Source: an uncultured SAR116 cluster alpha proteobacterium (GTDB taxonomy: Bacteria; Pseudomonadota; Alphaproteobacteria; Puniceispirillales; Marisalimonadaceae). Taken from it: a stretch of 64,000 nucleotides of DNA. Position 1 is the stretch's first letter. Every line of letters starts with the position of its first letter. Positions 8,705 to 45,471 of this stretch are shown in pieces. The notes below the pieces were generated by a model, which worked only from the letters and a program-made list of their open reading frames with translations, was not told the origin of the DNA and ran no database searches. Location of the stretch: positions 1 to 64,000 of the forward strand of contig CACMOJ010000004.1 in NCBI GenBank assembly GCA_902615325.1. The letters are read 5' to 3'. The position numbers and the translations under genes were made by a program.

Positions 8705-10486
8705 ATGCCATCAATAAATTCTAATACTGGAGCAATGTATTCTGTAAATGCAACCCAGAAAATTGAAAGAGAGATGAGTACATCTATGAAAAGACTAGCT
8801 TCTGGTGAAAGAATCACTAATGCTGGTGATGATGCTGCTGGTGCTGCTATATCTGACAGGATGTTATCACAAGTAAAAGGCTTGGAAATGTCTATTAGAA
8901 ATGCAGGAGATGTTATTTCTATGGCGCAAGTTTCTGAAGGAGCATTAGGAGAAATTGGAGATATCTTACAAAGAGTAAGAGAACTTGCAATACAATCAGC
9001 CTCTGATACGTATAATGCTACTGAAAGAAATTATATACAAACTGAAACAAATCAACTTTTATCAGAATTTGATAGAGTTACTAAGGATACAGAATTTAAT
9101 GAAGTTAATGTTTTAGACGGATCATTTGCAAGTAAAACATTTCAAATTGGTGTAAGAAAAGGTGAAAATGCGAGTATTTCAGTTAGCTCAATGAGAATAG
9201 ATGCTATTGGCGCATATCAGCAAACTACTGACATGTCTACAACTGATACCGATATAGCAACTAGTGCGAAATTAGTAACAAGTGCTTCAGATTCTGGTCA
9301 TGTTGAAGCTGACACAGTAACCATTAATGGTCAATTTGGAAATAAAGCACTTAGTATTACAGCAGATATGAGTGCAAAACAAGTTGCTGACCTTGTTAAT
9401 CAAAATTTTGACAGCACAGGTGTAGATGCAGTAGCTTCTACTCAAGTAAAACTTGAAGCTGTAGCAAATTCTGTTTCAGGATCTGCTGGAACAGTAACTG
9501 TTGCATTTGATTTATATGGTAAAAATACTGATGTTGTAAATGTTTCGGCTGCTATAACAACTGGAACTACCAAAGCGACTTCAAATATAGAACCGCTTCG
9601 AGATGCAATAAACGCTTACACTGCTCAAACAGGCATAGAAGCCGTTTTGTCTTTAGATAAATCAAATTTAATTTTAACTCAATCTGAAGGTTATGACATA
9701 AAAATTGTAGATACTAATTTTGATTTAGAAACTGTAGATGATGTTGTTACAACCTCAGTTGATGTAGCATCAACTGGAACAACTTTGATGTTAGCTTCTA
9801 CAACTGGAGTTGAAGTAGGTGATTTTGTTGTTGTAACTTCTGATCATTCACCTGCACCAGCTGGCGCTTATATTACTTCAATATCTTCTGGTGCTCACGT
9901 TGTTCTATCAGAAGCAATCAGTGGTACTATAGATGCGAATGCGACTGTAAATATTGTTAATGCTGAAAGAGCATTAGCAGTCACAGGTTTAAGTGAAGAT
10001 TTATCTACTTCAGGCATGGGAGCAACTTTAATAGATAAAGATCAAACAACACACACTTTTGACTCTACACGCGTGACAGGACAAGTTACTTTTAATTCAA
10101 CAGCTCAATTTACTGTCCAAGCAGACACTGACAAAGGACTATTCACAACCGCACCTGGGTCTGCAACCTTAAAAAAACTTAGCACAATAAAACTTAATAC
10201 AAGAACAGCTGCCGTTGATGCTCTAGTAGTCCTAGATAAAGCTTTAGATAGAATAAATTTAGAAAGAGCTAAGCTAGGAGCTATAATGAGCCGTATGACA
10301 AAAGCAATTGATAATTTATCCAACGTGTCCATGAATACAACTGAATCAAGAGGAAGAATAGTTGATGCTGACTTTGCACTTGAATCAGCAAATCTAACGA
10401 AGTCTCAAATTTTACAACAGTCTGCAACTGCTATGATAGCTCAAGCAAGTAGATCAATGCAAACTGTACTAGAATTATTAAAATAA
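8705..10486 (+). CDS. fliC: Flagellin (1)
   Basis: A 593-residue filament subunit. The N-terminal D0/D1 region is conserved (LASGERITNAGDDAAGAAIS; VRELAIQSASDTY; residues 1-170). The C-terminal D1/D0 region matches (TKSQILQQSATAMIAQASRS; about 505-593). The middle holds a flagellin-IN-like domain (about 200-345) interrupted near 350-418 by a beta-rich segment with the motif TTGVEVGDFVVV. It is longer than minimal flagellins because of this exposed region, the likely glycosylation surface. GGAGG lies six bases from the ATG. The next gene begins ten bases after its stop, so flagellin and a glycosyltransferase/methyltransferase may be co-transcribed. Confidence 0.92.
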   Translation: MPSINSNTGAMYSVNATQKIEREMSTSMKRLASGERITNAGDDAAGAAISDRMLSQVKGLEMSIRNAGDVISMAQVSEGALGEIGDILQRVRELAIQSASDTYNATERNYIQTETNQLLSEFDRVTKDTEFNEVNVLDGSFASKTFQIGVRKGENASISVSSMRIDAIGAYQQTTDMSTTDTDIATSAKLVTSASDSGHVEADTVTINGQFGNKALSITADMSAKQVADLVNQNFDSTGVDAVASTQVKLEAVANSVSGSAGTVTVAFDLYGKNTDVVNVSAAITTGTTKATSNIEPLRDAINAYTAQTGIEAVLSLDKSNLILTQSEGYDIKIVDTNFDLETVDDVVTTSVDVASTGTTLMLASTTGVEVGDFVVVTSDHSPAPAGAYITSISSGAHVVLSEAISGTIDANATVNIVNAERALAVTGLSEDLSTSGMGATLIDKDQTTHTFDSTRVTGQVTFNSTAQFTVQADTDKGLFTTAPGSATLKKLSTIKLNTRTAAVDALVVLDKALDRINLERAKLGAIMSRMTKAIDNLSNVSMNTTESRGRIVDADFALESANLTKSQILQQSATAMIAQASRSMQTVLELLK

Positions 10487-17400: not shown

Positions 17401-19191
17401 TTATCCTTGAAGTAAGGCTAATACAGTCTGCTTTGATGCATTAGCTTGAGCAAGCATTGAAGTTGATGCTTGAGCTAAAATCTGAGCTTTTGTCAATTTA
17501 GATGACTCAGAGGCAAAATCAGCATCAGTAATGTGACTTTTTGAAGCTTCTGTATTAAGAACAACATTCGTTAAATTTGAAACAACATTGTCTAATCTAT
17601 TTGAAATTGCTCCTTGTTCTGCTCTTGACAAATCAATCATACTTAATGCACCATCAACAATTGAAATAGCTTTTTCTGAGTTTGCGACAGTAGACAAGTC
17701 AACTGTACCTACATTAAGTAAAGTTGAAGTATCAGCTGATGTTCCACCACCTGTAAAGTCATCAGTTATTGCTGTTCCAGAACTTGATGTTACTGCAAAT
17801 GATTTAACTGAGTCAAATTGAACTTGACCTTTGAAGAAACCTCCAGCTGTATCATTTGCAGCTATGTAACCCGCATTTATATTACCAGCAGATGACGCAG
17901 ATATTGCTATGCTTGTAACTGTAGCAAACTGCTTAGTTGTTGTAACTGTAGCAGTGGCACCACCAGTTAAAGTTTCAACCAATGCTGAACCACTTAAATC
18001 TGTACCAGTAATTGTAACAGAAGCACCAGAGTCATCCCCAGATGATGTAACAGTAACGAGAGCACCAATGTGTGTACTCGCGTCAACAACTGATAATGTG
18101 TTAGTTTTTGCAATTGTAGCTAAAACACCTGCGGCACTAGCGGCACGAGCACCCATAACTATACCTTGAGTAGTTGATCCAGACGATAATGCTTGTGTAG
18201 TAGTTTCATCTGCACCCAAAGATCTCATTGTCATTGAAACACCAGTACTTAACATTCCAGATATTACAATGTCTTCTCCAGTTGCATGAGTTAAGAGAAT
18301 TCTACTAGAGTCAGCATTTTTCAAATTAGCTGTGATGTTAGTAGTACCAGTTTTATCATTGATAGCATCTCTTAATGCTGTAAGATCTGAAATAGATGAT
18401 ATTGCTGTTGTGTTTATAGTTGCAGAATTAGTACCATTACCAATAACAAAACCAATGTTACCTGCTCCACTTAAACCAACAATTTCAGCTTTTGTTACAG
18501 CAGAAGCTTCAACACCGGTAGATTCAGTTTGTCCATTTACAGCGGATGCAAATGTTGCAGCACTTGCGCCAGCTGCTACAGTAACTTCACCTTGACCAAT
18601 ATGACCATCAATTGTGTAAGTTTGTGAATCTATTGTTGCCGTTGAGCCAGCTACGTGAAATGCTGTACCTTCTACTCTATTAGTACCTATAGATGTTGCT
18701 TTAACATTTCTTATAGCTAAATCAATATCTTCAGATCGTTTGTGACCAACTTGTAGCTGAATGTCGTCGAATGTACCATCAAGAAGTTTCATTCCGTTCC
18801 ATCTAGTTTGATCACCAATTCTATTAATCTCAGCTAAAATCTGATCTGCTTCTTTTTCAAGGTAAATTCTGTCGGTTGCAGAATTTGTGTCGTTTGAACT
18901 TTGAACAGCAAGTTGTCTTAATCTTTGAAGTAAATTAACAACTTCCTTTTGTGCACCTTCTGCAGTATCTATCATAGCTTGGCCGTCAGAAGCATTTCTT
19001 ATTGCCTGATTAAGACCTCTTACCTGGCTTTCTAATTTATTAGAAATAGAACTGCCTGCGGCATCGTCAGCAGCAGAATTAATTCGCAAACCTGTGGAAA
19101 GTCTCTCGATAGCACTTTCTAGGTTTGCGTTATTTTTAGACATTGCAGCTTGTGCTGTTAAAGCCCCAACGTTTGTATTAATAACAGTCAT
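17401..19191 (-). CDS. fliC: Flagellin (2)
   Basis: A 596-residue flagellin distinct from flagellin 1. The N-terminal D0/D1 is TVINTNVGALTAQAA with RLSTGLRINSAADDAAGSSI (residues 2-170). The C-terminal D1/D0 ends ASTSMLAQANASKQTVLALL. The central region holds a flagellin-IN-like part (about 240-320) and, at about 370-445, one copy of the ~80-residue module found eight times in FlgK. It is preceded by AGGAGAT and a GTCGTTTT element rather than a sigma-54 site, so it is probably a late, FliA-dependent gene. FliD lies directly upstream in the same orientation. Confidence 0.92.
   Translation of the reverse strand: MTVINTNVGALTAQAAMSKNNANLESAIERLSTGLRINSAADDAAGSSISNKLESQVRGLNQAIRNASDGQAMIDTAEGAQKEVVNLLQRLRQLAVQSSNDTNSATDRIYLEKEADQILAEINRIGDQTRWNGMKLLDGTFDDIQLQVGHKRSEDIDLAIRNVKATSIGTNRVEGTAFHVAGSTATIDSQTYTIDGHIGQGEVTVAAGASAATFASAVNGQTESTGVEASAVTKAEIVGLSGAGNIGFVIGNGTNSATINTTAISSISDLTALRDAINDKTGTTNITANLKNADSSRILLTHATGEDIVISGMLSTGVSMTMRSLGADETTTQALSSGSTTQGIVMGARAASAAGVLATIAKTNTLSVVDASTHIGALVTVTSSGDDSGASVTITGTDLSGSALVETLTGGATATVTTTKQFATVTSIAISASSAGNINAGYIAANDTAGGFFKGQVQFDSVKSFAVTSSSGTAITDDFTGGGTSADTSTLLNVGTVDLSTVANSEKAISIVDGALSMIDLSRAEQGAISNRLDNVVSNLTNVVLNTEASKSHITDADFASESSKLTKAQILAQASTSMLAQANASKQTVLALLQG
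17865..18080 (-). repeat. Filament module copy in flagellin 2
   Basis: Encodes a unit of the form VTVTSSGDDSGASVTITGTD...GNINAGY. It matches the FlgK module consensus (VTI-S-G-SS-FTV-GTD-GN-E-TG-FK-ITSI-GNV-IGT). Confidence 0.6.
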
Positions 19192-19271: not shown

Positions 19272-21224
19272 TTAATCTTTATTAAATGATTCCATTAAAT
19301 TGGTCATGAATTCACCAGTATTTTTTAGGCTTGATATAGCCCCTTCCATCGCTGTAAATTGTTTTTTATATCTCTTTTCTAGGTTTTCACTAACAGTGTC
19401 AAGGTCAGTAAGTTCAAGATTAAAATCAGAAATATCTTGATTAAATTCGATCTCTTTGTTTGCTAAATCACCAGATACTTCTAAAAGTTTGTTGGTGTAT
19501 TTACTTAATTTTTCAACAAGACTTTCACCATAGAAAATAAATGCACTATCAACTGTCTGTGAGGGAGTTATTTTTATACCAGTTGCATCACCGGTCGTAC
19601 TAGCATAAAATGTATTGCCATTGTCATCTGTACCAGATGTCATGCCTAATCCATCAAGTGTAGCCGTACTATTTCCACTATCAAAAATAAAAGAATATTG
19701 TCCAGGCTTTGGTTTTATTGTTGTGTCGGAAGTGACTGACAAAAAAGCTGAGTTTGAAGAAAAAGATGAAATAAAAATTGCATTAAAGGCGTTTGGGTCT
19801 GCTAAAAAATTCTTTTTAAACTTTGCTTCATCTACTGAAAGACTTCCATCTCTGGCCGTTTGAAGGCCAAGACTTGAAGCATAATAATCATTTGAGCCAA
19901 AACCATTCAATTTTGAATTTACTAAATTATTTAATTGATTTTTTATAACTCCTATCATCACATCATCTGATAAAGGTCCCCTATTTTCCTCTAAATCAGA
20001 AGATTTTGTTAATTCCTCGAATAAAGATCTTGTTTGATTAAATGCACTTACAAATGTTTTCATATTTTCTAAAGAGGTATCTTCATCCAAAGAAGAAGAA
20101 ACTCTAAATGAAGAACTAGTTGTAGCACTAATTGACAGACTATATCCTTCAAATATGTCAGTTACAGTATTGGATGATCTATTTATACTAACTCCATCAA
20201 CAGTTAATTCTGCGTCAGAAGCAGATGTAGTTTGATGAGAATTGTTATCTGAGGTTGTGTCTAAAACTGAAAGTCCTGTGTCACCAGAATTTTCAGATAC
20301 TGTCAATCTTAAGGCACTATTTCTACCAGTATCAGATCTTAAAACAAGAGAATATGTTCCATCTCCTTTGTTAAGAACACTGGCAGTAACACCAGATATT
20401 TGGTTTAAATTATTTGCGATAGTTTCTATTGAAGAACCTTGGGTGATTGTAACTGTTTTGGATGTTTTAGCAGTATTTTTTCCAAATGTGTTGGCAGAAT
20501 GCCCAACAGTAACAGTTCCAGTTCCGACAGTTGACCCTGGGGTAATACTCGTTATAGATTTAAACACATTAATGCTTGAAACAGTTTGGCCATCTCCACC
20601 ACCTGTTACAACTTCAGTAACATTATTACCAGCCATATCTTTTCCAATTATGGTAAATGAAGTCGAGGACTGATTGCCACCAGCTGATGTAGATATAGTT
20701 ACTTGCCCGCCTAATGAATTATGACTAATTGGAGTTCCCAGTGAAGTACTTGCACTAACTGTTGTTCCTGAAGCAAATAATGAATCTGTATCTGTCGCAG
20801 TTCCATCGCTTGCAATCCAATTTCCAAAATCTATTGTTATCACTCCAGAACCAGTAGTAGATGTAGGTAAAGCAAAACCTGAAAATTCTAATGTTTGGGG
20901 AGTTGCTAAAGAAGAAATATTTATATCTGAGCTAAAAACATTTGCTTTGCTAGAATCAACAACGTTTAAAGATGTATTTACATTTCCACTTGCAGTTTTA
21001 AACTTAGATACATTTGTCAATGAAATAAGACTAGCATTAAGATTACTCAATTCACTTTTGATCTGTCCCAGAGCAGAAATATCTAAATTTTTTCCATCAA
21101 TTTTTTTGTTTATTAAATCTACTTTTGGTTTGGTTTCAGCTTCTACAAGACTTTCTACAATCTGTGTAATATTTAAACCACTTCCTTTGGTATTAATCGC
21201 GCTTACATAATCAACTGCTGCCAT
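19272..21224 (-). CDS. fliD: Flagellar filament cap protein FliD
   Basis: A 650-residue hook-associated protein 2. The N-terminus has the FliD signature (GLNITQIVESLVEAETKP, residues 17-34). The C-terminus has the coiled-coil end (FTAMEGAISSLKNTGEFMTNL, about 622-642). Between them lie a FliD_C-like region (SKLNGFGSNDYYASSLGLQ) and one module shared with FlgK at about 160-245. FliD caps the growing filament and guides flagellin assembly. AGGACG precedes the ATG. Two promoters overlap upstream, one sigma-54 and one of the GTCGTWT type. Confidence 0.92.
   Translation of the reverse strand: MAAVDYVSAINTKGSGLNITQIVESLVEAETKPKVDLINKKIDGKNLDISALGQIKSELSNLNASLISLTNVSKFKTASGNVNTSLNVVDSSKANVFSSDINISSLATPQTLEFSGFALPTSTTGSGVITIDFGNWIASDGTATDTDSLFASGTTVSASTSLGTPISHNSLGGQVTISTSAGGNQSSTSFTIIGKDMAGNNVTEVVTGGGDGQTVSSINVFKSITSITPGSTVGTGTVTVGHSANTFGKNTAKTSKTVTITQGSSIETIANNLNQISGVTASVLNKGDGTYSLVLRSDTGRNSALRLTVSENSGDTGLSVLDTTSDNNSHQTTSASDAELTVDGVSINRSSNTVTDIFEGYSLSISATTSSSFRVSSSLDEDTSLENMKTFVSAFNQTRSLFEELTKSSDLEENRGPLSDDVMIGVIKNQLNNLVNSKLNGFGSNDYYASSLGLQTARDGSLSVDEAKFKKNFLADPNAFNAIFISSFSSNSAFLSVTSDTTIKPKPGQYSFIFDSGNSTATLDGLGMTSGTDDNGNTFYASTTGDATGIKITPSQTVDSAFIFYGESLVEKLSKYTNKLLEVSGDLANKEIEFNQDISDFNLELTDLDTVSENLEKRYKKQFTAMEGAISSLKNTGEFMTNLMESFNKD
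20485..20745 (-). repeat. Filament module copy in FliD
   Basis: Encodes SLGTPISHNSLGGQVTISTS...SSTSFTIIGKDMAGN...VFKSITSITPGSTVGTGTVTVG. It is closest to FlgK modules at 31865-32115 and 32170-32410, sharing even the SLG-I-SH-GG lead-in. Confidence 0.75.
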
Positions 21225-30356: not shown

Positions 30357-33300
30357 TCAAACTACTTTTATCAAAGCTTCAAATAACTCTCTTGCTGTTT
30401 GCAATATACGTGCCGATGCTTGATAAGCCTGTTGAAACTCTAGTAAATGAGAAGCTTCGTCATCAAGGCTTACTCCAGCGAATTCACTTTGAGCTGATTC
30501 AGCAGCCTTTTTATTACTATTTGCAGCATTTAGAGACAAATCATTTGCTTGAACATTTGATCCAACTTTAGCAACAGTATTTGAAAAAATTTCTTGAAAA
30601 TTTCCTTTATTTTGATCTCTCATCTTTTCTAATTGAAGGTCTAACATATTCAAAACATTTCTATTATCTCCTGTACCTTTAGTATTATTAGAAATAAGGA
30701 AACTATCTCCTATAATTGCTTCCTCAGAGAACTGAAACCTTGACCCGATAGCTTCAAAAGATCTGTTTTGATCAAGAATTCGAGTTGAAATTGAATGACC
30801 AAATTTTTTATCAAAAATTTCAACTTTATTTTTATTAAGTTTGTCAATTTTAATTTCATATTCTGTATTATCTAATTTTGGAGCATTTTCTAGAATCTTA
30901 TATTCTGAACTTATTTTTTTTGCACCACCGTTCATTACAACAGCTACAAGCTCTTCTTGAGGTAAATTAGAAATTATAATTTGTTCTGAAACAATATTTT
31001 TTGTAGAATTTTCTGGTACTTTGGCTTGAATTGGCTTTCCACTTAATGAAATTAATTGAATTTCATCATTATTAACAATTGCTCGAGTATTTTTAGTTTT
31101 CAATCCATAAAGTTTATGATTATTTGGATCTCTAGAAAGGATGACATCATTTTTGCCAATATTATGAGAGATTGAAAATCTTCCTGTAGCCTGAGTTCCA
31201 ATTGAAACATTTCCAGATTCAGTTGCGGATGGTACTATTGAACTAATTAACTTAAAAACCTTTTTACCATAAACAGTAGTATTATTTCCTCCCGTAATTA
31301 CCTCTGTCATTGAATTTCCAAACATATCAGTGCCAGTTACTGTAAACTTGTTAGATGTTAAATTACTTCCCGAAGTAATCGTAACCGTTGACCCATTAAT
31401 CAAAGCAGATTGAGCTAGAGTTCCTATTTTTACATCATTACCTGTCGCTGAAGAAGGTGTTATAGATAAGATTTCTTTGAACTCTACAGCTCCATTTACA
31501 GTCCCAGACCCTCCATTAATAATGTCACTCTGATATTTTCCATCTTTGTCATACCCAGCAACTGTAAATGTTTTTCCAGTTTCATTTCCTGTAAAAGTAA
31601 TTTGAACTTTAGCATATAAGTTTTTATTACTTTTTAATACACCATCCAAATTCAAAGGATCGGCAGAAATAATTTGTTTCGACTTAAACAAGCTATCATC
31701 ATCAGTTGTGCTGAATGCCCCATCAAATTGAAGTGCTGCAACAGAACTAATAGCCTTAGAAGTTACTAAACTATCATTGTCAGTACTACCACCTTTATTA
31801 TCATCAAAGAAGAGAGTTACTCCAGATGGTGGTGAATAAGAAATATCTGAATTGACAGCATAATCTACTGATACGTTACCAGTACCTACAGTACCTCCTG
31901 CTGAAATGCTTGTAATTGTGTTAAATGTTGTATTTCCAATTACAAATTCATTTCCATTAGCACCAGTTATGCTTTCAGAGATTGAATTACCATCTATATC
32001 AGTACCATTTACAGTAAATGTTGTTGAAGTTTGATTACCTCCACTTGCTGTAAATAATTTAACCTTGCCTCCATACCCAGTATGACTTTTAATTGAACCT
32101 AGTGAAGTATTTGCAGAAACAGTTGCTAAAGAAATAAGATTAATATCCCTAGAATCGTTATAGAAAACAGGCTGTGAATCTTTTCCAATTTCTACATTGC
32201 CAGTCCCGACTGAAGAACCAGTTGTTATTGAAGTAATTTTTCTAAATACTTTTAACCCAGTAGAAGTCTGCCCCCCTGTAGCTCCAGTTATGACCTCTGT
32301 CTGAGCAGTGCCAGACATATCGGTTCCTACAACTGTAAATTCAGTTGAAGATTGGTCTCCTCCAGAAGCTGTCGAAATTGTTACTTTTCCAGCTAATAAA
32401 TTTGTTGCATTTATGCTTAAAGTAGCGTTTGTTGAGATTGAATTCGAAGAAAAGAGTTGTGATGCATCAGAATTTCCAGCAAGTTTAACATAGAAATTTT
32501 CATAAGTATCTCCCGTATTAACTGAAAGTCTTAGTGGAATATTTTCTTCGTTATCATCAAATGATGGTTTTTTAATCAAATTACCAATTAAAGTTGTAGT
32601 TGCATTTGTCAAACCAAAATTAGAGGCATTTGACAAATTATTTGTATTTTGCACTAATTCAAATTGATCTCCTTCTATAGAACCCTCAGTCGAAATAGTA
32701 AGTTTATATCCAGGAGCGGTACCAACTTCAATATTTCCAGATGTGGAGCTAGTAGCTGATATTGAAGTTATAGTTTTAAATATCTTTAAACCGGATACAG
32801 TTTGACCTTTTTCACTACCAGTTATTTTTTCAGAAATAGAATTACCATCAAGATCAGTTCCAGTTACAGTAAAACTGTTATTACTTTCATCTTCAACTGA
32901 CTTAATAGTAACTCTTGTTCCTTGAAATGTTGTTGTGGCATTAACTCCATTTAATGAAAAATTGTTGCCAGCATTAACGCTTTGAGATTTTGCTAGAGCA
33001 TCTTCATCTAATGACGACATCTCTTCAAAAGAAGCTCTGACTCTATTATGTTCTAATCCTGACACTACCAATTCACCAGAATTCATGGATATTTCGTAAT
33101 CTTGACCTTCAAATATTAATGAGATTTTTGAATTCTCTTTAGGTAATTGATTAATGACCTCTCCTTTCAATAAAGATGTTGGAGACTCTTTTCTAAGTTC
33201 TTTTATTAGCTCGTTAGAAATTTCTTGAGAAGTGTCTGCATTTAAACTGTTGGCATCAATTTCTGCAATCCAAGAACTATCTCCTACTACAGTTCCAATC

Positions 33301-36300
33301 ATGATATTGCCGGTTGTATTGCTTGCTACAGTTATAGAAGTAACTTTTTTAAATACCTCAGTGCCTTCAATCGCACCCCCATTAGTACCTTGAATAGTTT
33401 CACTTATTGTTTTTCCATCCATATCTAAGCCATTGATGGTAAAACTATTTGAAGATTCATTTTCAGAACATTCCACTCTAATTTTGGCATTTAAATAATC
33501 TGCAGTAGATAACACCCCTTTCATGGTAATACTACCAGAAGAATAATTGTCATTTTTTACCAAAGAATCATAATCAATAAGTTTATGCCTTCCGCGTGTT
33601 CCTATTTCTATATTTCCGTTAGCTGTTGCAGTTGTAGTTATGGATGTAATTGACGTGAATATTTGCGCAGATTGAACACTTTCACCGTTTTTACCAGTAA
33701 CCGTTTCAGAAATAGTATTTCCATCAATGTTTTTTCCAACTATTACAAAACTATTACTAGTTTCATCACCTGAACAATTAATAGTAATAGACGAATTTAA
33801 GTTTGTTTCATTAATCAATGCACCATTTAGAGTTAACACGCCAGCCGCACCTGGATTAGAACTGGTAAACAAACTATCATCGTCTTTTGCAAAAACTCTG
33901 TAACCACTTAGTGGTATGTTTATCCCATAGTTTGATAATCCAGCTTGAGCTTTTTTACCATTTTCGTTGCTTAAATTATTATCTAACAATCCCATCGAAA
34001 TAGGTTTAAAATTAATTATTTCTCCTGAAGCATTATATTTTATATCATATAAATTATTTAACGATGGATCTTGTTTTGCACTAATTATTTGTCCACTATC
34101 AATTTGAGAATTAAAGTTTAAACTAGATTCAAATCTTATATTTCCCTTAACAAAAGCACTTTTTTCGTCTTCATCACTAATATCAATCCTATGCAATCTA
34201 TCATTCAATAATTCAAATTCACTATTAAGAATACCCATTGAAACATCCGATGGAGAAACAATATTAGTCATTTCTATATCATAACCTTCTTCGGAAATTA
34301 ATATAACTCTATCAAAATCAGACGTACTTACAGCTTTAATGTTTGTTTGAGATGTAAATTGATTTATTTGTTTAGCTAAATCAGATATATCATCTGAATC
34401 TACATTTGCAATAATTGAAACTTCTTCACTATTACTCCCTTTTAGATCAAAACTAAATGTACCACTTCCAGTTTTACTCAAGGGACCAATAGCTAAAATT
34501 GTTTTAGCAGAAGCAACAACTCCAGTGCCTACCAAATTTTCATTCAGTTTTTTTGCTGTATAATAGGCTGACGAGTTTATTGGTACAGATATTGTTTTAG
34601 ATTGATCATTATCATTAGTTATCTTTAAACTATAACCTGATGCTTTCGTTCCTATTTTAAGTTCTCCAGCAGCATTTGCACTTGAGGAAATAGATGAAAC
34701 AGACTTAAAAACTTTATTTCCAGTCACACTTGTTGCATTAACACCCGGTATAGTTTCAGATTGAAAATTTCCATCTAAATCATAGCCTTCCACAGTAAAA
34801 TTTACAGAGGAATCATTTCCAGTACTTGTTATTGTTACAAAAGCGTCAAGATCATTCGAATTACTCAAGACACCATCTAAAGTAAGGGAACCACTTAAAC
34901 TTGATGCATCTTTATTAGTGAATAAACCATCATTATCAGTCGCTTGTTTGTCATAACTAATATTAGCACCAAAGTCTAAAACGTAATCACCAGAAGTTGA
35001 AATTCTCTTACTATCTATTCCTCGATAATTAAGATTCAAATAATCATTTTTGTATTCTGCATTTTTAAGAAAGCCGTTACTTTCTTTAATAATTTTTGCA
35101 ATATCTGATGAGTTTAGTGCTGTTCCTGAGATATGCCTTCCATCTCTTGTAAATAATTGGATTTCACTTGCGGTTGCATCAGAAGTATCAATTTGTGATA
35201 TACTGGATGAGTATGTATTTCCATTAGATAAAATAGATGCTGATGTTACACTTGCATTACTTGATTTAATCGTAAGTGCACCATCTCCACCAGAGGCAAA
35301 AAGTCCATATTTCCTAAAGTTATGCTCATTTTTCCCATCAAGCGCTAAACCAGAGTTCAAATAATCAGCTAACTCTTTAACTGATCTTATTCCATCTCCT
35401 GGATCTTCATTTGCAGAAGTTAATGTCAATGAATTACCATCTGACAAATTTATTGTAATATTTGAAAACCCTTTAATTTGACTGTCATAAAGATTAAACT
35501 GTGCAGATGATTGATCTGCTAAAGAAGATAAATTAAAAAACTCTGTGCTTGGATTAATTATAGTAAAAGCACCATCATTCAAAAATTTTGATGCTAACAA
35601 GGGATTATTTGATGAAGAAAAGACTTCATCAATATTTCTTATATTACTTTTATTTATGATATTTTCTTTTCCAATTATTTTTAAGTCAGCTTTACTAATA
35701 TTATCTAAACTTGATGAAATAATTTGTTTTGATGCAGCAGCCAGAGATGAAGGGTCTTTTAATAAAAAAGAAAATGCAGAGGCTTTGGATGAATTTGGTT
35801 CAATTATAAATTGATCATTGTCAGATATTTGACCTTTTATTTTTAGACTAAATCCCTCGAAATTTAAATTATTATTACCATAAATTTTTATTCCTTCAGA
35901 ACTTGATACTTCCCAACTATTTGATGAGGCAAGATATTTGAATTTTATTTTTTCTTGATTAATGAGATTTTCATTACCTACAATCATATCTACATTAAAA
36001 CCACCAACGTTTTGTTGAATTTTTGGTTTCATTGAGTTGATAGAGAACATCGAAATACCTGTTTTACCATTTAAATCGATGCCATTTTGCTGTATTTCGT
36101 TAAAGTTTTGTGACAATCTGAAAGCTAATTGATTAATTTCAGATTCTACTTCTCCAACAAAATCATAGAAATTCTTTACTCCGAACAATAATCCTGAAGA
36201 CACATCATTATTTATTGAATTTATTCCATTTCTAGAAATATTAAAAATTAATCTTCCTTCTTGAATATCTGACAACAAAATTGATTTATTTGTCTTTTCC

Positions 36301-37019
36301 AATAAAATTTTACCATTTCCAGAATTTCCTAATCTTATAATAGCATCATTACTATCGCCATAATCTACCGTAAAATTAATATATTTTGATAAATCTAATA
36401 GTAATTGATCCCTCGCATCTAAAATGTCTGGTGATGAATTTTTTGATCCTCCACTCATAATTAATTTATTGACCTGAGCAAGTTGATCCACAAGTGAATT
36501 GACAACCTTTAAATCATCTTGCACCTCTTTATGAGCACTTGATTTAAAGTTTTTTAATTGATTGTCATAATTGTTAAATGAATTTGCAAGAGCTTTACCA
36601 TTTTCTAATGCAACAGTCCTAGCTGACAATTCATCTGGTCTTGAAGCAATATCTTGTAATGAGTTAAAAAATCTTCCTATAAAGGTTCCAAGATCACTAT
36701 CACCTGGGAGTAACATATTTTCTAATTTGTTTAATTTATTAACAAAGCCATCTAATCTCTCATATTCACCATTTGTGTCTCTTAAGTTAGATGATAAAAA
36801 TGCATCAAATGATCTTCTAATTTGATTAACCCTTACCCCTAATCCTGACTGATCTGGGACATTAGTTACTCCACCTTGAACACTGGGAACTTCTTCAAGG
36901 TCAGCATTTCTTTTATTATATCCTTCTGTATTTACATTGGCGATATTTTGACCAGTAACTGCCAAAGCTTGTCTATAAGCTTGTACACCGGATTTACCTA
37001 TTTCAAATAAACTAGCCAC
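30357..37019 (-). CDS. flgK: Giant hook-filament junction protein FlgK
   Basis: A 2220-residue FlgK, about four times the usual 450-650. The ends are canonical: FEIGKSGVQAYRQALAVTGQ and NIANVNTEGYNKR at the N-terminus, SLDDEASHLLEFQQAYQASA and LQTARELFEALI at the C-terminus. In between are the ordinary FlgK domains (to about 640), then a region with one flagellin-like domain (about 790-1000) and eight copies of an ~80-residue module (consensus with FTVxGTDxxGN, ExITG, FKxITSI, GNVxIGT). It has no internal stop in 6.6 kb, so selection keeps it intact. It probably forms a large exposed collar at the hook-filament junction. Confidence 0.9.
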   Translation of the reverse strand: MASLFEIGKSGVQAYRQALAVTGQNIANVNTEGYNKRNADLEEVPSVQGGVTNVPDQSGLGVRVNQIRRSFDAFLSSNLRDTNGEYERLDGFVNKLNKLENMLLPGDSDLGTFIGRFFNSLQDIASRPDELSARTVALENGKALANSFNNYDNQLKNFKSSAHKEVQDDLKVVNSLVDQLAQVNKLIMSGGSKNSSPDILDARDQLLLDLSKYINFTVDYGDSNDAIIRLGNSGNGKILLEKTNKSILLSDIQEGRLIFNISRNGINSINNDVSSGLLFGVKNFYDFVGEVESEINQLAFRLSQNFNEIQQNGIDLNGKTGISMFSINSMKPKIQQNVGGFNVDMIVGNENLINQEKIKFKYLASSNSWEVSSSEGIKIYGNNNLNFEGFSLKIKGQISDNDQFIIEPNSSKASAFSFLLKDPSSLAAASKQIISSSLDNISKADLKIIGKENIINKSNIRNIDEVFSSSNNPLLASKFLNDGAFTIINPSTEFFNLSSLADQSSAQFNLYDSQIKGFSNITINLSDGNSLTLTSANEDPGDGIRSVKELADYLNSGLALDGKNEHNFRKYGLFASGGDGALTIKSSNASVTSASILSNGNTYSSSISQIDTSDATASEIQLFTRDGRHISGTALNSSDIAKIIKESNGFLKNAEYKNDYLNLNYRGIDSKRISTSGDYVLDFGANISYDKQATDNDGLFTNKDASSLSGSLTLDGVLSNSNDLDAFVTITSTGNDSSVNFTVEGYDLDGNFQSETIPGVNATSVTGNKVFKSVSSISSSANAAGELKIGTKASGYSLKITNDNDQSKTISVPINSSAYYTAKKLNENLVGTGVVASAKTILAIGPLSKTGSGTFSFDLKGSNSEEVSIIANVDSDDISDLAKQINQFTSQTNIKAVSTSDFDRVILISEEGYDIEMTNIVSPSDVSMGILNSEFELLNDRLHRIDISDEDEKSAFVKGNIRFESSLNFNSQIDSGQIISAKQDPSLNNLYDIKYNASGEIINFKPISMGLLDNNLSNENGKKAQAGLSNYGINIPLSGYRVFAKDDDSLFTSSNPGAAGVLTLNGALINETNLNSSITINCSGDETSNSFVIVGKNIDGNTISETVTGKNGESVQSAQIFTSITSITTTATANGNIEIGTRGRHKLIDYDSLVKNDNYSSGSITMKGVLSTADYLNAKIRVECSENESSNSFTINGLDMDGKTISETIQGTNGGAIEGTEVFKKVTSITVASNTTGNIMIGTVVGDSSWIAEIDANSLNADTSQEISNELIKELRKESPTSLLKGEVINQLPKENSKISLIFEGQDYEISMNSGELVVSGLEHNRVRASFEEMSSLDEDALAKSQSVNAGNNFSLNGVNATTTFQGTRVTIKSVEDESNNSFTVTGTDLDGNSISEKITGSEKGQTVSGLKIFKTITSISATSSTSGNIEVGTAPGYKLTISTEGSIEGDQFELVQNTNNLSNASNFGLTNATTTLIGNLIKKPSFDDNEENIPLRLSVNTGDTYENFYVKLAGNSDASQLFSSNSISTNATLSINATNLLAGKVTISTASGGDQSSTEFTVVGTDMSGTAQTEVITGATGGQTSTGLKVFRKITSITTGSSVGTGNVEIGKDSQPVFYNDSRDINLISLATVSANTSLGSIKSHTGYGGKVKLFTASGGNQTSTTFTVNGTDIDGNSISESITGANGNEFVIGNTTFNTITSISAGGTVGTGNVSVDYAVNSDISYSPPSGVTLFFDDNKGGSTDNDSLVTSKAISSVAALQFDGAFSTTDDDSLFKSKQIISADPLNLDGVLKSNKNLYAKVQITFTGNETGKTFTVAGYDKDGKYQSDIINGGSGTVNGAVEFKEILSITPSSATGNDVKIGTLAQSALINGSTVTITSGSNLTSNKFTVTGTDMFGNSMTEVITGGNNTTVYGKKVFKLISSIVPSATESGNVSIGTQATGRFSISHNIGKNDVILSRDPNNHKLYGLKTKNTRAIVNNDEIQLISLSGKPIQAKVPENSTKNIVSEQIIISNLPQEELVAVVMNGGAKKISSEYKILENAPKLDNTEYEIKIDKLNKNKVEIFDKKFGHSISTRILDQNRSFEAIGSRFQFSEEAIIGDSFLISNNTKGTGDNRNVLNMLDLQLEKMRDQNKGNFQEIFSNTVAKVGSNVQANDLSLNAANSNKKAAESAQSEFAGVSLDDEASHLLEFQQAYQASARILQTARELFEALIKVV
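31190..31405 (-). repeat. FlgK module 8
   Basis: Encodes VTITSGSN..NKFTVTGTDMFGN..EVITGG...VFKLISSI...SGNVSIGT. Full-length copy; boundaries approximate. Confidence 0.7.
31419..31650 (-). repeat. FlgK module 7
   Basis: Encodes AKVQITFTGNETGKTFTVAG-YDKDGK...FKEILSI...GNDVKIGT. Immediately precedes module 8. Confidence 0.7.
31865..32115 (-). repeat. FlgK module 6
   Basis: Encodes SLGSIKSHTGYGGKVKLFTA, then STTFTVNGTDIDGN...FNTITSISAGGTVGTGNVSV. Closest, with module 5, to the FliD copy. Confidence 0.75.
32170..32410 (-). repeat. FlgK module 5
   Basis: Encodes GKVTISTASGGDQSSTEFTV, VGTDMSG, EVITGATGGQT and FRKITSITTGSSVGTGNVEI. Same TASGG-QSST core as the FliD copy. Confidence 0.75.
32710..32950 (-). 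repeat. FlgK module 4
   Basis: Encodes RVTIKSVEDESNNSFTVTG, TDLDGNSISEKITG and FKTITSISATSSTSGNIEVG. Confidence 0.75.
33280..33520 (-). repeat. FlgK module 3
   Basis: Encodes IRVECSENESSNSFTINGLD, ISETIQGTNG and FKKVTSITVASNTTGNIMIG. Confidence 0.75.
33590..33830 (-). repeat. FlgK module 2
   Basis: Encodes ITINCSGDETSNSFVIVGKN, TISETVTGKNG and FTSITSITTTATANGNIEIG. Confidence 0.75.
34635..34875 (-). repeat. FlgK module 1
   Basis: Encodes VTITSTGNDSSVNFTVEGYD, SETIPGVN and FKSVSSISSSANAAGELKIG. Separated from module 2 by the flagellin-like domain. Confidence 0.7.
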
Positions 37020-40803: not shown

Positions 40804-43800
40804 TTATGCTCTAATTTGAATAATTGCCTGAGTTAAAGTCGTATTTGTTTCGATGGTTTTGGCATTAGCCTGAAAGTTTCTTTGAGCTGTAATTAAGTTT
40901 ACAAGTTCTTCGGTAATATCAACATTTGATCTTTCAAGAGAACCTGAAAGTATTGTACCATAACCATCAGCACCAGCTTCACCAACATTTGCAACACCAG
41001 AAACCGACGTCTCTACATATGTAGCGTTACCAATCTGCTTTAAACCATTTTGGTTATTAAAATTTACAGTAACTAATCTTCCAAGAGCAATGTTTAAACC
41101 GTTTGTATAGTTAGCACTCACTAATCCATTTGAAGCCACATCTAGACCATCAAGCTTACCAACAGTTTGACCGTCTTGAGTTACAGATCTTACGTTAAAA
41201 TCTGATGCAAATTGTGTGGACCCATTAAAATTTAAATCAAGATCAATAGACAATGCAGACTGATCTAAATCAGCATTTGCTGCAAAGTCGCCTTTATAAC
41301 CTACTTTTTGAATTGGACTAACAAGATTACCTTGAGTATCAAAAGTTAATTCACCAGGTCTTAAATATACCTTAGCAAATGTTCCATTTGTAGTGGGTGT
41401 CCAAGCGCTATCAGGTGCTAAAGTAGTAGTTGTTCCTGCATCATTCACAAAAAGTGACTGCCCCGTAGCTGACTTTGCTGTAGCATTAGCCATATTAACA
41501 AATGAAGGAGTAGATCCTGTCTGTAATTCTAGATTATCTAATCCTAATCTTGTACTTCCAGATACAAATATTTTACTATTTGCACCAGTTGTTCCAGTTG
41601 TGAAGGTAAAAGAATTTGATACTGTATTATACACTACAGTAACTCCATTTACTGTATTACCAGAACTATCTTCCATTTGATTAATTCTTTCTTGTAGGGC
41701 TGTGGCTAATTGTGTTCCATTATAAACACCCTCAGGAACTTTAATAGCAGCAGTTATGTCATTTACGTTAACAACAAATATAGTTTCTTCTGCAGCTTCA
41801 GATAAAAAGAAGTCTTCTGATAAATCCTCGTTAGAAGTTTTACCTGTAAGAACAGCTGCTGTTGACTTTAAACCCTGTCCAGCACCCTCACCTGTAGCAG
41901 TAGAAATTGCAGTCGTCGCGTTTACACCAAGAAGAGCATTTGTTCCTCCTGTTCCAGTGGTTGCAGCTGTTGCAACACCATCAACAATAGCTAATCTTCC
42001 TATTTCAATATTAGAGGAAGCTTGACCAGCATCACCAACGCCAACAGCTGAATTTGAAGGAATGTTCTCACCAGTCGTACCACTAGATATACTAAATTTC
42101 CTTGTTAAGTTATTATACTCAACTTCTACACCAAAAGCTCTCTGAGTGTCAGCAGCAATCTGATCACCTTTAAATACAACTGACTCAGCTTTAAGTACAG
42201 CACCACCACCAATATTTGCTGTTGCTTTATTAGCTAATGTTTTTAGTCCAATAGCATTTGACCCAGTTCCTTCTCCAGGCGCAAAAGCAGAAAAAGAAAA
42301 CATCTTACTAGATGTTGATGTTCCAATTTTTGAAGGTACACCTTGCAAAGTAAAATTTTGACCTGATGAATCATATGCTATTTTCAGTGCTGGATCATTT
42401 TCATCCACCCAATCATCAGTTATTCCCAGATCTTGAAAAATGGAAACATTATCATTATGAGCTGCAGCAGTTGTGCCACCAACACCTCTTGTTAATCCAG
42501 TAAAAGTTGTAGCAGTTTTACCAGTATATTGGACTAACTCATTTTCAATTCTGAGAAATCCACTATCATCAAAACCCGTTGTGTCATCAACAGTAATAGT
42601 GGTCGCCGCATCTGTAATATTTGATGTATTATTAATCAATGTGTGTCTTCTTTCTAACCCTAAACCCTCTATACTTTCAACAAGACTAACTTCAGGTAGT
42701 AACGTTATTGTTGCGTTATCTGCATGAGTAGCGGCTGTAGTTCCATTAGCACCACGAGTTAATCCAGATAAAACACTTCCTGTATTACTAGTATACGTTA
42801 TTTGTTCTGAACCTATTAATATAGTTCCTTTTGACGGTAATGGACCATTACTGGTTCCATCATAATTGATTGTTGTTTCGGTAGCAGTTAAATCATCATT
42901 TCCTGAAGTATCTGAATTATCGTTTAAAACTGCAGTAGCTGAGGCAGAAGCAGATGTACCATCAACTCCCCTTGTAACACCTGTAAAATCAGTACCATTA
43001 TCATCAAGGCCAGTGTAAGAGATTTTCTCATTACCTATTTTGATTGTTCCAGTCGCTGGAAAACCTGCAGTAGAACCTACTGTTAATGTTCCTCCTGTAG
43101 CTGGAGTTCCAGTCGCAACAGCAGCTGCAGTAACTGTATTCCTTAATTCATCTCTAAAATCACTTATTATACCTTCAGTAAATGATACTAATGAAACAGC
43201 TGTATCATCAACTATATTGTTAGAACTAAAGTCAGTACTCGAAATTGTAATTTGATTAGTGGATGTATCGGTAGCGGAGTAATCAACCTCTGTTGTTCCA
43301 ATTTTAATTCTTCCGCCAGTTGAAGGAAATCCTGTTACATCGTCAACTGTAATAGTCGTTGTAGTAGATGAAGTTAATGCTCCATTTAATAACGTACTTG
43401 GTTGTTTTAAATCCTTATTAAGATACGCATGCTTGTTTAATTCTTTTAGAACAATTCTTTTACTTCCAAAATGAGTTGTTTGATTGTCAAAAATGTCTGA
43501 ACCACCCTCAAAATAGGCGTCTACATCTTTTGAAGCTGTGTGTAGAACTTTAATTTTAGTGTCTGTAATATTTATAGCTGCTGTAGAGTCTGATTTTAAG
43601 TTAAGAAATTTATTACCATTTGCATCAGTTCCAGCACTTGAAACAGAAAACTTTGCACCATTATACTTTAAATTGTTTACAGTTGAAGTAGTTGTATCAA
43701 ACTCCCCTGCAAGATAAACTTCAGTGGGAAATGAAGTTGTTGAAATAGTATCATCAGGATCATTAATAAATACTTTTAATGTTCCACTTGCATCTTGGAC

Positions 43801-45471
43801 CATAGTATTACCGCTAACAGCCTTAACATCTAAAGATTTTTCAAAAACTTTCAATAGCGGTGAATTGTTATAATAACTATGCAATAAAAATTTTGTTTCA
43901 TCAGTTGCGGCTTGTTCATTAGTTAAATCAGTGGATGGTTGCTTATAGTTAAAACTTAAAACTTCAGTTTCTTGCACAGCTCCAGCTAATTTTGTTCCAG
44001 TTGCTCTTGCAAATAAGGCTGAACTCACTCCGTATGTTGAAGCATTGTTAGTGGCACCATCTGCTGACACACCAGCTCTGTTTAGTGCATCATTAATTCT
44101 CAATTGAGCGTGTGCCAAAAACTCTTCTCTTTTGAAGTTTGGTGATGCAACGTTTTCAATTCCGCTAGTTGTACTGAACAAATCTTCTGTTACAAAACTA
44201 TCTTTCATTAAGTCAACATTTATTGCAGTAAGAGTTTGAAGTTCATCATTGTTATCTAATTGGTTAAATTGAATTGAAAAACTACCATCAGTAACAGGAT
44301 CTATGGATAACTTTGAGTCATCACCAAGTCCAGCGTTAATAGCTCTTTGAACCTCTTTAGCTAAAGTGGCCGCTGTATAGGTTCCTGGTCTAATATCAAT
44401 ACTTTTGAACGCAGCACTACCAGTCGTGTCATCTACTCTGACTGTTAGGAAATCTTTTCCCCAATATGTTGACTTATTCAATGTTGGGTTGGCTTCATAA
44501 GTAGTATAATATTGCAATGGATCTGTTACGACTGTTATAGATGGAGCAGTAGTAGTAAAGGCAGCATCTTCTAAAACTTTATTTGAAATAGTAGCTGCTT
44601 TCGAAGTTGTTTTGTTTGCTAAATCATCAAGAAAGAATAATGGTTGTGTTTGAGCTACTGAAATAATTTGAGGTTTTTCATCTATTGGAATTACTTGACC
44701 AAATCTATCAACTACCAGGGTTTGTCCAGTAGGTGAAATAGCTTCTGTAAGAGATGGTTCAACTTCTCTTCCATCAACAATAAATTTTGTTTGATATTTA
44801 TGTGTTACATTATCTCCAGATGCAGCTTGAGTTTTTATAAAAAATGCAGTTGCAATTACTGGATTACCCAAATTATCAAAAATTGTAACAGAAGTTGAAG
44901 AATTGAAAGTTTCAGGATTTGATGGGTCAAAATCATCAGCATTTGCAAATACAGTTGAAGATGCAGGTAAGTTAACAGATAATGCTAAATTTTTAGTAGC
45001 TTTTGCTTCACCAGCTTCAAGTTCAAGTTTTAAAGGTTTCGCATCTACAATTTCACCACCTTGAACAGATCCATCATTTGATACAGGAAGTGCTAAAACA
45101 TACTGACCAGCTGAATCAACAACAAATCTATCGTTATTAACTGAGAAAGATCCATTTCTGGTGTAAACTGTTTGGTTAGTTGTAAGAGAAGGTCTCAAAG
45201 CAAAGAAACCTTGACCAGATATCGCTAAATCAAGTGCATTAAGGGAAGATGTAACATTACCTTGAGTAAATTGCTGTTTAATACCTTTTAAAATAGTACC
45301 AGAACCAATTGATGATGATGCATTTTGTAATGGTGAGGTTGCAAAAATATCACCAAATTCAGCTTTACTTCTCTTATAACCTGTAGTAGCGACGTTTGCT
45401 ATGTTATTCGAAGTTGCTGAGATGTCAGCCTGAGATCCATTCAAACCTGTTAAAGCGGTATAAAACGACAT
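40804..45471 (-). CDS. flgE: Giant flagellar hook protein FlgE
   Basis: A 1555-residue hook subunit, about three to four times normal. The N-terminus is canonical (FYTALTGLNGSQADISATSN, NIANVATTGYKRSKAEFGDI) and so is the C-terminus (VDITEELVNLITAQRNFQAN, AKTIETNTTLTQAIIQIRA). The middle contains two copies of a domain with I-V-PG-YT-LA-vqxAIN character (about 345-390 and 1240-1300). Four ~60-residue repeats lie at about 700-1015, with TTITVDDTTGF, GxIxIGxExIxYTG and FTGLTRGxxGT motifs as in phage virion proteins. AAGGAG precedes the ATG. The frame is intact over 4.7 kb. Confidence 0.92.
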   Translation of the reverse strand: MSFYTALTGLNGSQADISATSNNIANVATTGYKRSKAEFGDIFATSPLQNASSSIGSGTILKGIKQQFTQGNVTSSLNALDLAISGQGFFALRPSLTTNQTVYTRNGSFSVNNDRFVVDSAGQYVLALPVSNDGSVQGGEIVDAKPLKLELEAGEAKATKNLALSVNLPASSTVFANADDFDPSNPETFNSSTSVTIFDNLGNPVIATAFFIKTQAASGDNVTHKYQTKFIVDGREVEPSLTEAISPTGQTLVVDRFGQVIPIDEKPQIISVAQTQPLFFLDDLANKTTSKAATISNKVLEDAAFTTTAPSITVVTDPLQYYTTYEANPTLNKSTYWGKDFLTVRVDDTTGSAAFKSIDIRPGTYTAATLAKEVQRAINAGLGDDSKLSIDPVTDGSFSIQFNQLDNNDELQTLTAINVDLMKDSFVTEDLFSTTSGIENVASPNFKREEFLAHAQLRINDALNRAGVSADGATNNASTYGVSSALFARATGTKLAGAVQETEVLSFNYKQPSTDLTNEQAATDETKFLLHSYYNNSPLLKVFEKSLDVKAVSGNTMVQDASGTLKVFINDPDDTISTTSFPTEVYLAGEFDTTTSTVNNLKYNGAKFSVSSAGTDANGNKFLNLKSDSTAAINITDTKIKVLHTASKDVDAYFEGGSDIFDNQTTHFGSKRIVLKELNKHAYLNKDLKQPSTLLNGALTSSTTTTITVDDVTGFPSTGGRIKIGTTEVDYSATDTSTNQITISSTDFSSNNIVDDTAVSLVSFTEGIISDFRDELRNTVTAAAVATGTPATGGTLTVGSTAGFPATGTIKIGNEKISYTGLDDNGTDFTGVTRGVDGTSASASATAVLNDNSDTSGNDDLTATETTINYDGTSNGPLPSKGTILIGSEQITYTSNTGSVLSGLTRGANGTTAATHADNATITLLPEVSLVESIEGLGLERRHTLINNTSNITDAATTITVDDTTGFDDSGFLRIENELVQYTGKTATTFTGLTRGVGGTTAAAHNDNVSIFQDLGITDDWVDENDPALKIAYDSSGQNFTLQGVPSKIGTSTSSKMFSFSAFAPGEGTGSNAIGLKTLANKATANIGGGAVLKAESVVFKGDQIAADTQRAFGVEVEYNNLTRKFSISSGTTGENIPSNSAVGVGDAGQASSNIEIGRLAIVDGVATAATTGTGGTNALLGVNATTAISTATGEGAGQGLKSTAAVLTGKTSNEDLSEDFFLSEAAEETIFVVNVNDITAAIKVPEGVYNGTQLATALQERINQMEDSSGNTVNGVTVVYNTVSNSFTFTTGTTGANSKIFVSGSTRLGLDNLELQTGSTPSFVNMANATAKSATGQSLFVNDAGTTTTLAPDSAWTPTTNGTFAKVYLRPGELTFDTQGNLVSPIQKVGYKGDFAANADLDQSALSIDLDLNFNGSTQFASDFNVRSVTQDGQTVGKLDGLDVASNGLVSANYTNGLNIALGRLVTVNFNNQNGLKQIGNATYVETSVSGVANVGEAGADGYGTILSGSLERSNVDITEELVNLITAQRNFQANAKTIETNTTLTQAIIQIRA
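42430..43370 (-). repeat. Four phage-like ~60-residue repeats inside FlgE
   Basis: Units (gene order) at about 43190-43370, 42915-43110, 42690-42890 and 42430-42615. Shared signature: TTITVDDxTGF, then GxIxIGxExIxYTG, then FTGLTRGVxGTTAAxHxDN. The last three are closest to each other; the first lacks the LTRG part. Confidence 0.75.

What the first reader, a model, noticed from the sequence alone, without database searches (positions are those of the whole stretch)
42430..43370. Phage-virion-like repeats inside a giant hook protein
FlgE has four ~60-residue units with TTITVDDTTGF, GxIxIGxExIxYTG and FTGLTRGVxGTTAAxHxDN. I associate this GFPxxGxIxIGxExIxYTG signature with tail and fibre proteins of tailed phages. 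The hook protein is 1555 residues, so each of its many subunits would display these units. This could be phage-derived decoration or a decoy surface.
Basis: partly seen in the sequence, partly recalled or inferred. Interest (0 to 1): 0.7.

Follow-up and report, generated by a model that had tools for sequence, protein, structure and literature searches.

The report
Phage-tail modules in SAR116 flagella
In one family of abundant ocean bacteria (SAR116), the giant flagellar hook protein carries, in its fastest-changing part, small building blocks otherwise found almost only in virus tails, and virus-shared blocks also sit in other outer flagellum proteins, which points to marine phages as a source of variable flagellar surface parts.

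Summary
Observation confirmed. The 1555-aa FlgE (45471..40804, -) carries four ~60-aa units at aa 703-1011 (42439-43365). An HMM from these four alone hits all 122 viral loci collected for the unit, none when shuffled. PHROG 4406 ("virion structural protein") hits at 4e-17. AlphaFold models each unit as a confident small beta-domain; the only solved folds with Z>=8 are six phage virion proteins. Among 384 other Alphaproteobacteria none has it; other Pseudomonadota hits are mostly phage tail genes.

FlgE is mostly 73-100% identical across the SAR116 family except at the array (26-70%), where dN/dS is about tenfold higher. In relatives a three-unit cassette occupies FlgK and a giant flagellin, with clean empty sites in sisters. 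A second ~85-aa module, also in marine viral contigs, occurs 8x in the window's FlgK and once each in FliD and a flagellin.

Best reading: virion-type modules were captured into outward slots of flagellar axial proteins and now form a variable surface. Shown: homology, distribution, hypervariability, insertion. Inferred: phage-to-host direction, exposure, selective reason. A decoy role is untested. The unit tree resolves neither direction nor number of captures.

The parts
40804..45471 (-). FlgE, giant flagellar hook protein, 1555 aa
   Evidence: ORF; Pfam FlgE_D2, Flg_bbr_C, Flg_bb_rod; NCBIfam FlgE models match aa 1-327 and the C-terminal part
42412..43401 (-). hypervariable slot of FlgE, aa 691-1020, holding the unit array
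   Evidence: 26-70% identity in 30-aa bins across 33 family FlgEs versus 73-100% in nearly all other bins; dN/dS about tenfold above core
43186..43365 (-). virion-type unit 1 (aa 703-762), degenerate second half
   Evidence: unit HMM 44 bits
42934..43098 (-). virion-type unit 2 (aa 792-846)
   Evidence: unit HMM 67 bits; profile E=4e-22
42700..42882 (-). virion-type unit 3 (aa 864-924)
   Evidence: unit HMM 73 bits; profile E=1e-24
42439..42606 (-). virion-type unit 4 (aa 956-1011)
   Evidence: unit HMM 86 bits; profile E=3e-27; modelled fold matches six phage structures at Z 8.0-11.4
30357..37019 (-). FlgK (HAP1), 2220 aa, with 8 copies of a second (~85 aa, 'DGN') virus-shared module; lacks the three-unit cassette present in some relatives
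   Evidence: Pfam FlgK_D1; 8 repeats; empty site
34638..34895 (-). FlgK DGN repeat 1
33588..33845 (-). FlgK DGN repeat 2
33282..33542 (-). FlgK DGN repeat 3
32712..32969 (-). FlgK DGN repeat 4
32172..32417 (-). FlgK DGN repeat 5
31854..32108 (-). FlgK DGN repeat 6
31410..31667 (-). FlgK DGN repeat 7
31185..31409 (-). FlgK DGN repeat 8
19272..21224 (-). FliD (filament cap), one DGN module at 20493-20747
   Evidence: Pfam FliD_N and FliD_C; DGN HMM 2.7e-21
17401..19191 (-). flagellin, 596 aa, one DGN module at 17860-18096
   Evidence: Pfam Flagellin_N/C; DGN HMM 3.4e-17

Best explanation
The array is a run of four small beta-domains of a type that tailed phages carry in many virion proteins (tail sheath, tail tube, baseplate wedge, hub, tail fibre). 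In the ancestor of this SAR116 family such modules were captured into the middle of the hook protein, between the halves of the chain that form the D2 domain, a position that in known hooks points away from the axis. There they form a variable coat on each hook subunit while the core keeps its shape. The same kind of module, and a second virus-shared module, were inserted into other axial proteins (FlgK, flagellin, FliD), and homologous recombination in the conserved flanks helps spread array alleles. The likely benefit is a changing surface towards flagellum-binding phages, grazers or surfaces. Shown: homology to virion modules, predicted fold, hypervariability confined to the array, cassette presence/absence at clean sites, near-absence in other sampled bacteria outside phage-type genes. 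Inferred: phage-to-host direction, exposure in the assembled hook, the selective reason.
For: Structure: four units modelled at pLDDT about 80-92; six phage structures at Z 8.0-11.4 stand above F1-ATPase barrels at <=7.4; viral models with 40-49% identity at rmsd about 1 A. Distribution: 0 of 384 other alphaproteobacterial genomes; 11 other genomes among 398 Pseudomonadota, mostly tail-type genes. Variability. Insertion: FlgK cassette in 7 loci, empty site in 20; flagellin with and without it. Second module in marine viral contigs.
Against: The unit tree does not resolve direction or number of captures, and one flagellar clade is not rejected (p-AU 0.877). Best identity of units to viral ones is only about 40-64%, so any capture is old or from unsampled phages. 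Array dN/dS is below 1 (0.13-0.35 in the closest pairs), so positive selection is not shown. Recombination signals also occur elsewhere in FlgE, if less strongly. The cultured SAR116 phage HMO-2011 shows no unit in the 50 of 55 kb read. Foldseek against PDB had no hit at E<=0.001. Exposure is not modelled.
Confidence: 0.7

Rival explanations
1. Host-to-phage direction: the module is an old bacterial surface domain that marine phages took up and multiplied; the SAR116 flagella are a source or a side branch.
For: The unit tree cannot give direction. A few non-phage bacterial proteins carry the unit: a pilin-like protein (L098) and a secreted-looking protein in relatives.
Against: In sampled bacteria outside this family the unit is almost confined to phage-type tail genes, while it spans many virion protein families and hundreds of viral contigs.
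Confidence: 0.13
2. Decoy or interference: the modules mimic virion parts, so that phages or their tail fibres bind the hook or filament unproductively, or tail assembly is disturbed.
For: Shared module on host surface and virion; the tail tip of phage Chi, which uses flagella as receptor (PMC10399903), carries the fold.
Against: No evidence that virion modules bind each other; the fold occurs in phages with no known tie to flagella (VP1, JBD30, GP4, Mystique, LKA1). The array varies fast, whereas mimicry of one partner would favour constancy.
Confidence: 0.06
3. Mechanical filler: the arrays only thicken or stiffen a large hook and filament; the phage likeness reflects a handy, stable beta-module and the variability is lack of constraint.
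For: Giant FlgE is order-wide, with other contents in the slot in other families; dN/dS below 1 fits relaxed constraint; giant flagellins give thick filaments elsewhere (PMC6248924).
Against: Does not explain why virus-shared modules recur in four axial proteins, nor array alleles with discordant synonymous divergence.
Confidence: 0.2
4. Convergence or low-complexity resemblance of Thr/Gly-rich beta proteins.
For: The region is Thr/Gly rich; PDB Foldseek E-values are weak.
Against: Composition-preserving shuffles give 0 hits against 134 real; invariant I, E, R and A and near-invariant T, T and H columns between hook and phage units; Z above 10 to phage structures at 16-22% identity.
Confidence: 0.03

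Closest known systems
PHROG 4406 / 2885 / 708 / 11439 virion structural, baseplate wedge and tail fibre families; cyanophage tail sheath with the unit (P-RSM6, S-WAM1)
   Same: Same ~60-aa unit by profile and fold; the tail sheath, like the hook, is a helical tube whose subunit carries the unit
   Different: Here the carrier is a bacterial hook protein in an intact flagellar operon, not a virion protein
Flagellin hypervariable region D2/D3 (PMC7018530)
   Same: Central, nested, variable slot between conserved ends, exchanged by recombination; [quoted passage not shown]
   Different: Here it is mainly the hook protein, and a likely source pool (virion modules) can be named
Flagellinolysin: metallopeptidase domain inserted in flagellin (PMC5595980)
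   Same: A foreign domain inserted into the central surface region of a flagellar axial protein
   Different: No enzyme here; virion-type beta-modules, in tandem, and in several axial proteins
Giant flagellins of marine gammaproteobacteria (PMC6248924)
   Same: Greatly enlarged axial flagellar protein in marine bacteria
   Different: That work concerns flagellin size and thick filaments; 'phage' does not occur in its text
Prophage-encoded flagellin and TldR flagellar remodelling (PMC13418256, abstract only)
   Same: Phage genes shape the host flagellum
   Different: There a phage-encoded regulator acts on flagellin expression; here virion modules sit inside host chromosomal axial proteins

Membership tests
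Flagellar hook protein FlgE | N- and C-terminal rod/hook domains, D1 and D2 domains | tested here: met
   Pfam Flg_bb_rod, FlgEFG D1, FlgE_D2, Flg_bbr_C all over cut-off; TIGR03506 265.8 bits over cut-off 70.25
Flagellar hook protein FlgE | Place in a flagellar rod/hook operon | tested here: met
   FlgB/C-type rod proteins, FlgD, FlgF/G-type, FlgH, FlgI and rod-binding neighbours by Pfam
Flagellar hook protein FlgE | Score over curated equivalog cut-offs for FlgE | tested here: not met
   Best FlgE equivalog 364 bits against cut-off 472; the models match only the two ends because of the roughly 1050-aa central insert. The subfamily model TIGR03506 is met
Tailed-phage virion beta-module (PHROG 4406-type unit) | Profile match in both directions between hook and phage | tested here: met
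   PHROG to FlgE 4e-17; FlgE-only HMM to 122 viral loci, shuffled 0
Tailed-phage virion beta-module (PHROG 4406-type unit) | Same fold as solved phage virion domains | tested here: met
   9in6_M Z 11.4 (80 aa, 3.5 A), 8rk3_b Z 10.6 (73 aa, 1.7 A), 8jov_1 Z 10.3 (82 aa, 3.2 A); predicted model, unit 4 mainly
Tailed-phage virion beta-module (PHROG 4406-type unit) | Encoded in a virion gene or inside a prophage | tested here: not met
   The carrier is FlgE within a flagellar operon: it shares the module, it is not a virion protein
Hypervariable region of a flagellar axial protein | Variable centre between conserved ends | tested here: met
   Array 26-70% versus mostly 73-100% elsewhere; dN/dS 0.13-0.35 versus about 0.01-0.03 in the closest pairs
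Hypervariable region of a flagellar axial protein | Exchange of the variable part as a block | tested here: met
   FlgK and flagellin cassette present/absent at clean sites; array synonymous divergence discordant with core in both directions, though other FlgE windows also show some
Hypervariable region of a flagellar axial protein | Surface exposure in the assembled structure | not testable with these tools
   Full FlgE exceeds the length limit; the flagellin model was poor (pLDDT 49)

The most novel reading that the evidence does not exclude
Marine phages and the flagella of this family draw on a shared pool of exchangeable surface modules: two unrelated virus-shared module types are repeatedly captured into nearly all outer axial proteins of the flagellum (hook, junction, cap, filament), as a continuing arms-race strategy in which host flagella are rebuilt from viral surface parts.
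Probability: 0.3. Interest if true: 0.85.

Novelty: new variant of a known kind. Interest (0 to 1): 0.7.

Why it matters
Variable regions of flagellins are among the most diverse protein parts known, and a large survey states that the source of those it studied is unknown (PMC7018530). Here a concrete source pool, virion modules of marine phages, can be named, with present/absent cassettes, conserved flanks and many single-cell genomes. That makes origin, exchange and function of variable flagellar parts directly testable in an abundant ocean clade. It also links the decoration of two kinds of helical tube, the phage tail sheath and the flagellar hook.

Tried and rejected
tblastn of the unit stretch against phages at 1e-5 gave nothing; at E<=10 it gave 261 records, mostly cyanophages and pelagiphages, the best around 1e-5. 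Plasmids: no match. A degenerate viral search from the mixed alignment A1 failed for lack of conserved stretches. The phage-flagellin idea (PHROG 16088 matching a relative's flagellin) was followed: flagellin-bearing records in the phage collection matched mainly the flagellin ends and are mostly short or unannotated, and a viral scan with the giant flagellin gave none; dropped. HMO-2011, a phage of a SAR116 member, showed no unit in the 50 kb read. The unit tree was too short to resolve and a one-clade test did not reject a single flagellar origin; the test for FlgE alone did not finish. The giant flagellin model was too poor to use. tblastn of two FlgK repeats against phages gave none at 0.01 and PHROGs gave only weak hits, but IMG/VR contained 54 loci. 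A possible different phage-like module in the FlgE slot of another family (L071, E=5.8e-4) was not confirmed and is not claimed. Assembly artefact rejected: the array is in dozens of independent single-cell and metagenome genomes and under purifying selection.

Full report
What is there. The ORF 45471..40804 (-) encodes a 1555-aa protein with all FlgE domains; NCBIfam FlgE models match its two ends, aa 1-327 and about 1400-1554. It stands in an intact row of FlgB/C-type rod proteins, FlgD, FlgE, FlgF/G-type proteins, FlgH, FlgI, a rod-binding protein and FlgK. The window has 29% GC and comes from a SAR116-cluster alphaproteobacterium, as record titles of close FlgE orthologues show.

Is the phage likeness real? 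Yes. hmmscan of FlgE against PHROGs gives phrog_4406, virion structural protein, E=4e-17 in four stretches. Single units hit baseplate wedge, tail fibre and virion structural families. tblastn finds the unit, at relaxed E-values, in pelagiphage Skadi 'tail tube B', roseophages CRP-901/902, the tail sheath of cyanophage P-RSM6 and S-RIM2 structural proteins, and an HMM places units in them. An HMM made only from the four window units hits 134 viral ORFs in all 122 collected loci, and none after shuffling the ORFs or permuting the HMM columns. Most of these loci were collected because they have the unit, so the count is not a frequency; the controls show only that composition does not explain the match.

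Fold. AlphaFold2 on aa 560-1085 with 33 orthologues models each unit at about pLDDT 80-92; overall pLDDT is only 66.5 and pTM 0.41, so the arrangement of units is not known. Among solved structures re-aligned by VIA, the six best (Z 8.0-11.4) are all phage virion proteins: VP1, JBD30 baseplate, Chi tail tip, GP4 portal-tail, Mystique tail tube and LKA1 tailspike; unrelated F1-ATPase barrels follow at Z<=7.4. Foldseek itself gave no PDB hit at E<=0.001 but 74 viral models at that level, some with 40-49% identity at about 1 A. A sequence profile of the units also finds the Chi minor tail protein (E=2e-4).

Who has it. In 385 genomes spread over Alphaproteobacteria only the window's own has the unit at 1e-4. 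Among 398 Pseudomonadota, 11 others do; read by eye and by PHROGs these are mostly tail hub, sheath, baseplate or tail fibre genes, with one pilin-like exception. Within the order, phrog_4406 finds it in most genomes of the window's family and, apart from one weak hit (G053), in none of the other families sampled, although giant FlgE of about 1230-1580 aa is order-wide. So the enlarged hook is older; the virion-type filling of its slot belongs to this family.

The array is the hypervariable part. Aligned with 32 family orthologues, FlgE is 73-100% identical in 30-residue bins, except one bin at 67% (aa 1171-1200) and residues 691-1020, at 26-70%. In the closest pairs dN/dS is about 0.01-0.03 for the core and 0.13-0.35 for the array. 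For window versus L024 synonymous divergence is nearly the same in both (0.35 and 0.33), yet the nonsynonymous proportion is 0.063 in the array and 0.007 in the core. In other pairs array synonymous divergence is far lower (L037/L059 0.06 against 0.30) or far higher (L041/L062 0.57 against 0.27) than core, which points to exchange by recombination; other FlgE windows show milder discordance, so recombination is not unique to the array. Alignment between the arrays of different genera is uncertain, so the exact array identities are rough.

Spread to other axial proteins. In sister genus g2 the FlgK of five genomes (seven loci, two of them repeats) carries a three-unit cassette of about 235 aa, while 20 other FlgKs lack it at a clean site between LLTSKT and the following LDG stretch. 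The same cassette, 76-85% identical in protein, sits in a giant flagellin of G013, G022 and G035, and is missing from the flagellin of G032, which is almost identical to that of G035 over the first 180 residues. The giant flagellin model was too poor to place it.

A second module. FlgK of the window holds eight ~85-aa 'DGN' repeats, and one copy each lies in FliD and a flagellin. One FlgK repeat finds 54 viral loci at 42-57% identity; an HMM from the eight repeats hits all 54, shuffled none. In Alphaproteobacteria it occurs in the window genome and 2 of 384 others: one beside a phage-like gene set (L343), one in a secreted-looking protein (L342). The function of the viral proteins that carry it is not known here. 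So hook, junction, cap and filament of this flagellum each carry a virus-shared module.

How it most likely works. The array is a nested insertion between the two halves of the D2 region (Pfam FlgE_D2 matches at aa 168-290 and again near aa 1359-1434). From known hook architecture (own knowledge) such insertions face outwards. I therefore infer a variable coat on the hook, with core and assembly surfaces unchanged, and the usual explanation for variable flagellar parts, escape from flagellum-binding phages or other agents (discussed for flagellin in PMC7018530). Direction from phage to host is inferred from distribution only: the 57-column unit tree is unresolved and a single flagellar clade is not rejected (p-AU 0.877). 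Relaxed constraint instead of diversifying selection is not excluded.

Comparison with the known. Domain insertion in flagellin (PMC5595980), giant flagellins (PMC6248924), recombining hypervariable regions (PMC7018530) and phage-encoded flagellar remodelling (PMC13418256) are known. My literature searches found no report of virion modules in hook proteins, but the library holds only open-licence papers. I rate this a new variant of a known kind.

Noticed in passing
L071:5196-9305 and L163-L168: Giant FlgE of about 1230-1580 aa is order-wide in SAR116 relatives; the same slot (between IVLRE.. and WVDE..PP) holds unrelated sequence in other families.
   Followed up: partly
L066:4302-5657 (-), also L067, L069, L072, L073: A ~450-aa secreted-looking protein of unknown family in genus g2 carries one virion-type unit near aa 330-370; no Pfam or NCBIfam family over cut-off.
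   Followed up: partly
L098:1090-2748 (+): A pilin-like (PilX-type N-terminus by eye) protein in another pseudomonadote has one unit: possibly a second kind of bacterial filament with the module.
   Followed up: no
L093:3-1301 (-) and L080:4647-7481: Phage tail sheath proteins carry two or three of the units, a close parallel to the hook as another helical tube with the same insertions.
   Followed up: no
L342:700-2649 (+): An exo-sialidase-like protein (by eye) of an alphaproteobacterium carries one DGN module.
   Followed up: no
window 8705-10486 (+) and 17401-19191 (-): Two flagellin genes on opposite strands; only the second has a DGN module and neither has the barrel unit.
   Followed up: no
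FlgE of genus g2, e.g. L044:7678-9726: The array region has a further stretch (VxGxxIDxxTxVxAxxG type) between units that may be yet another module; not identified.
   Followed up: no
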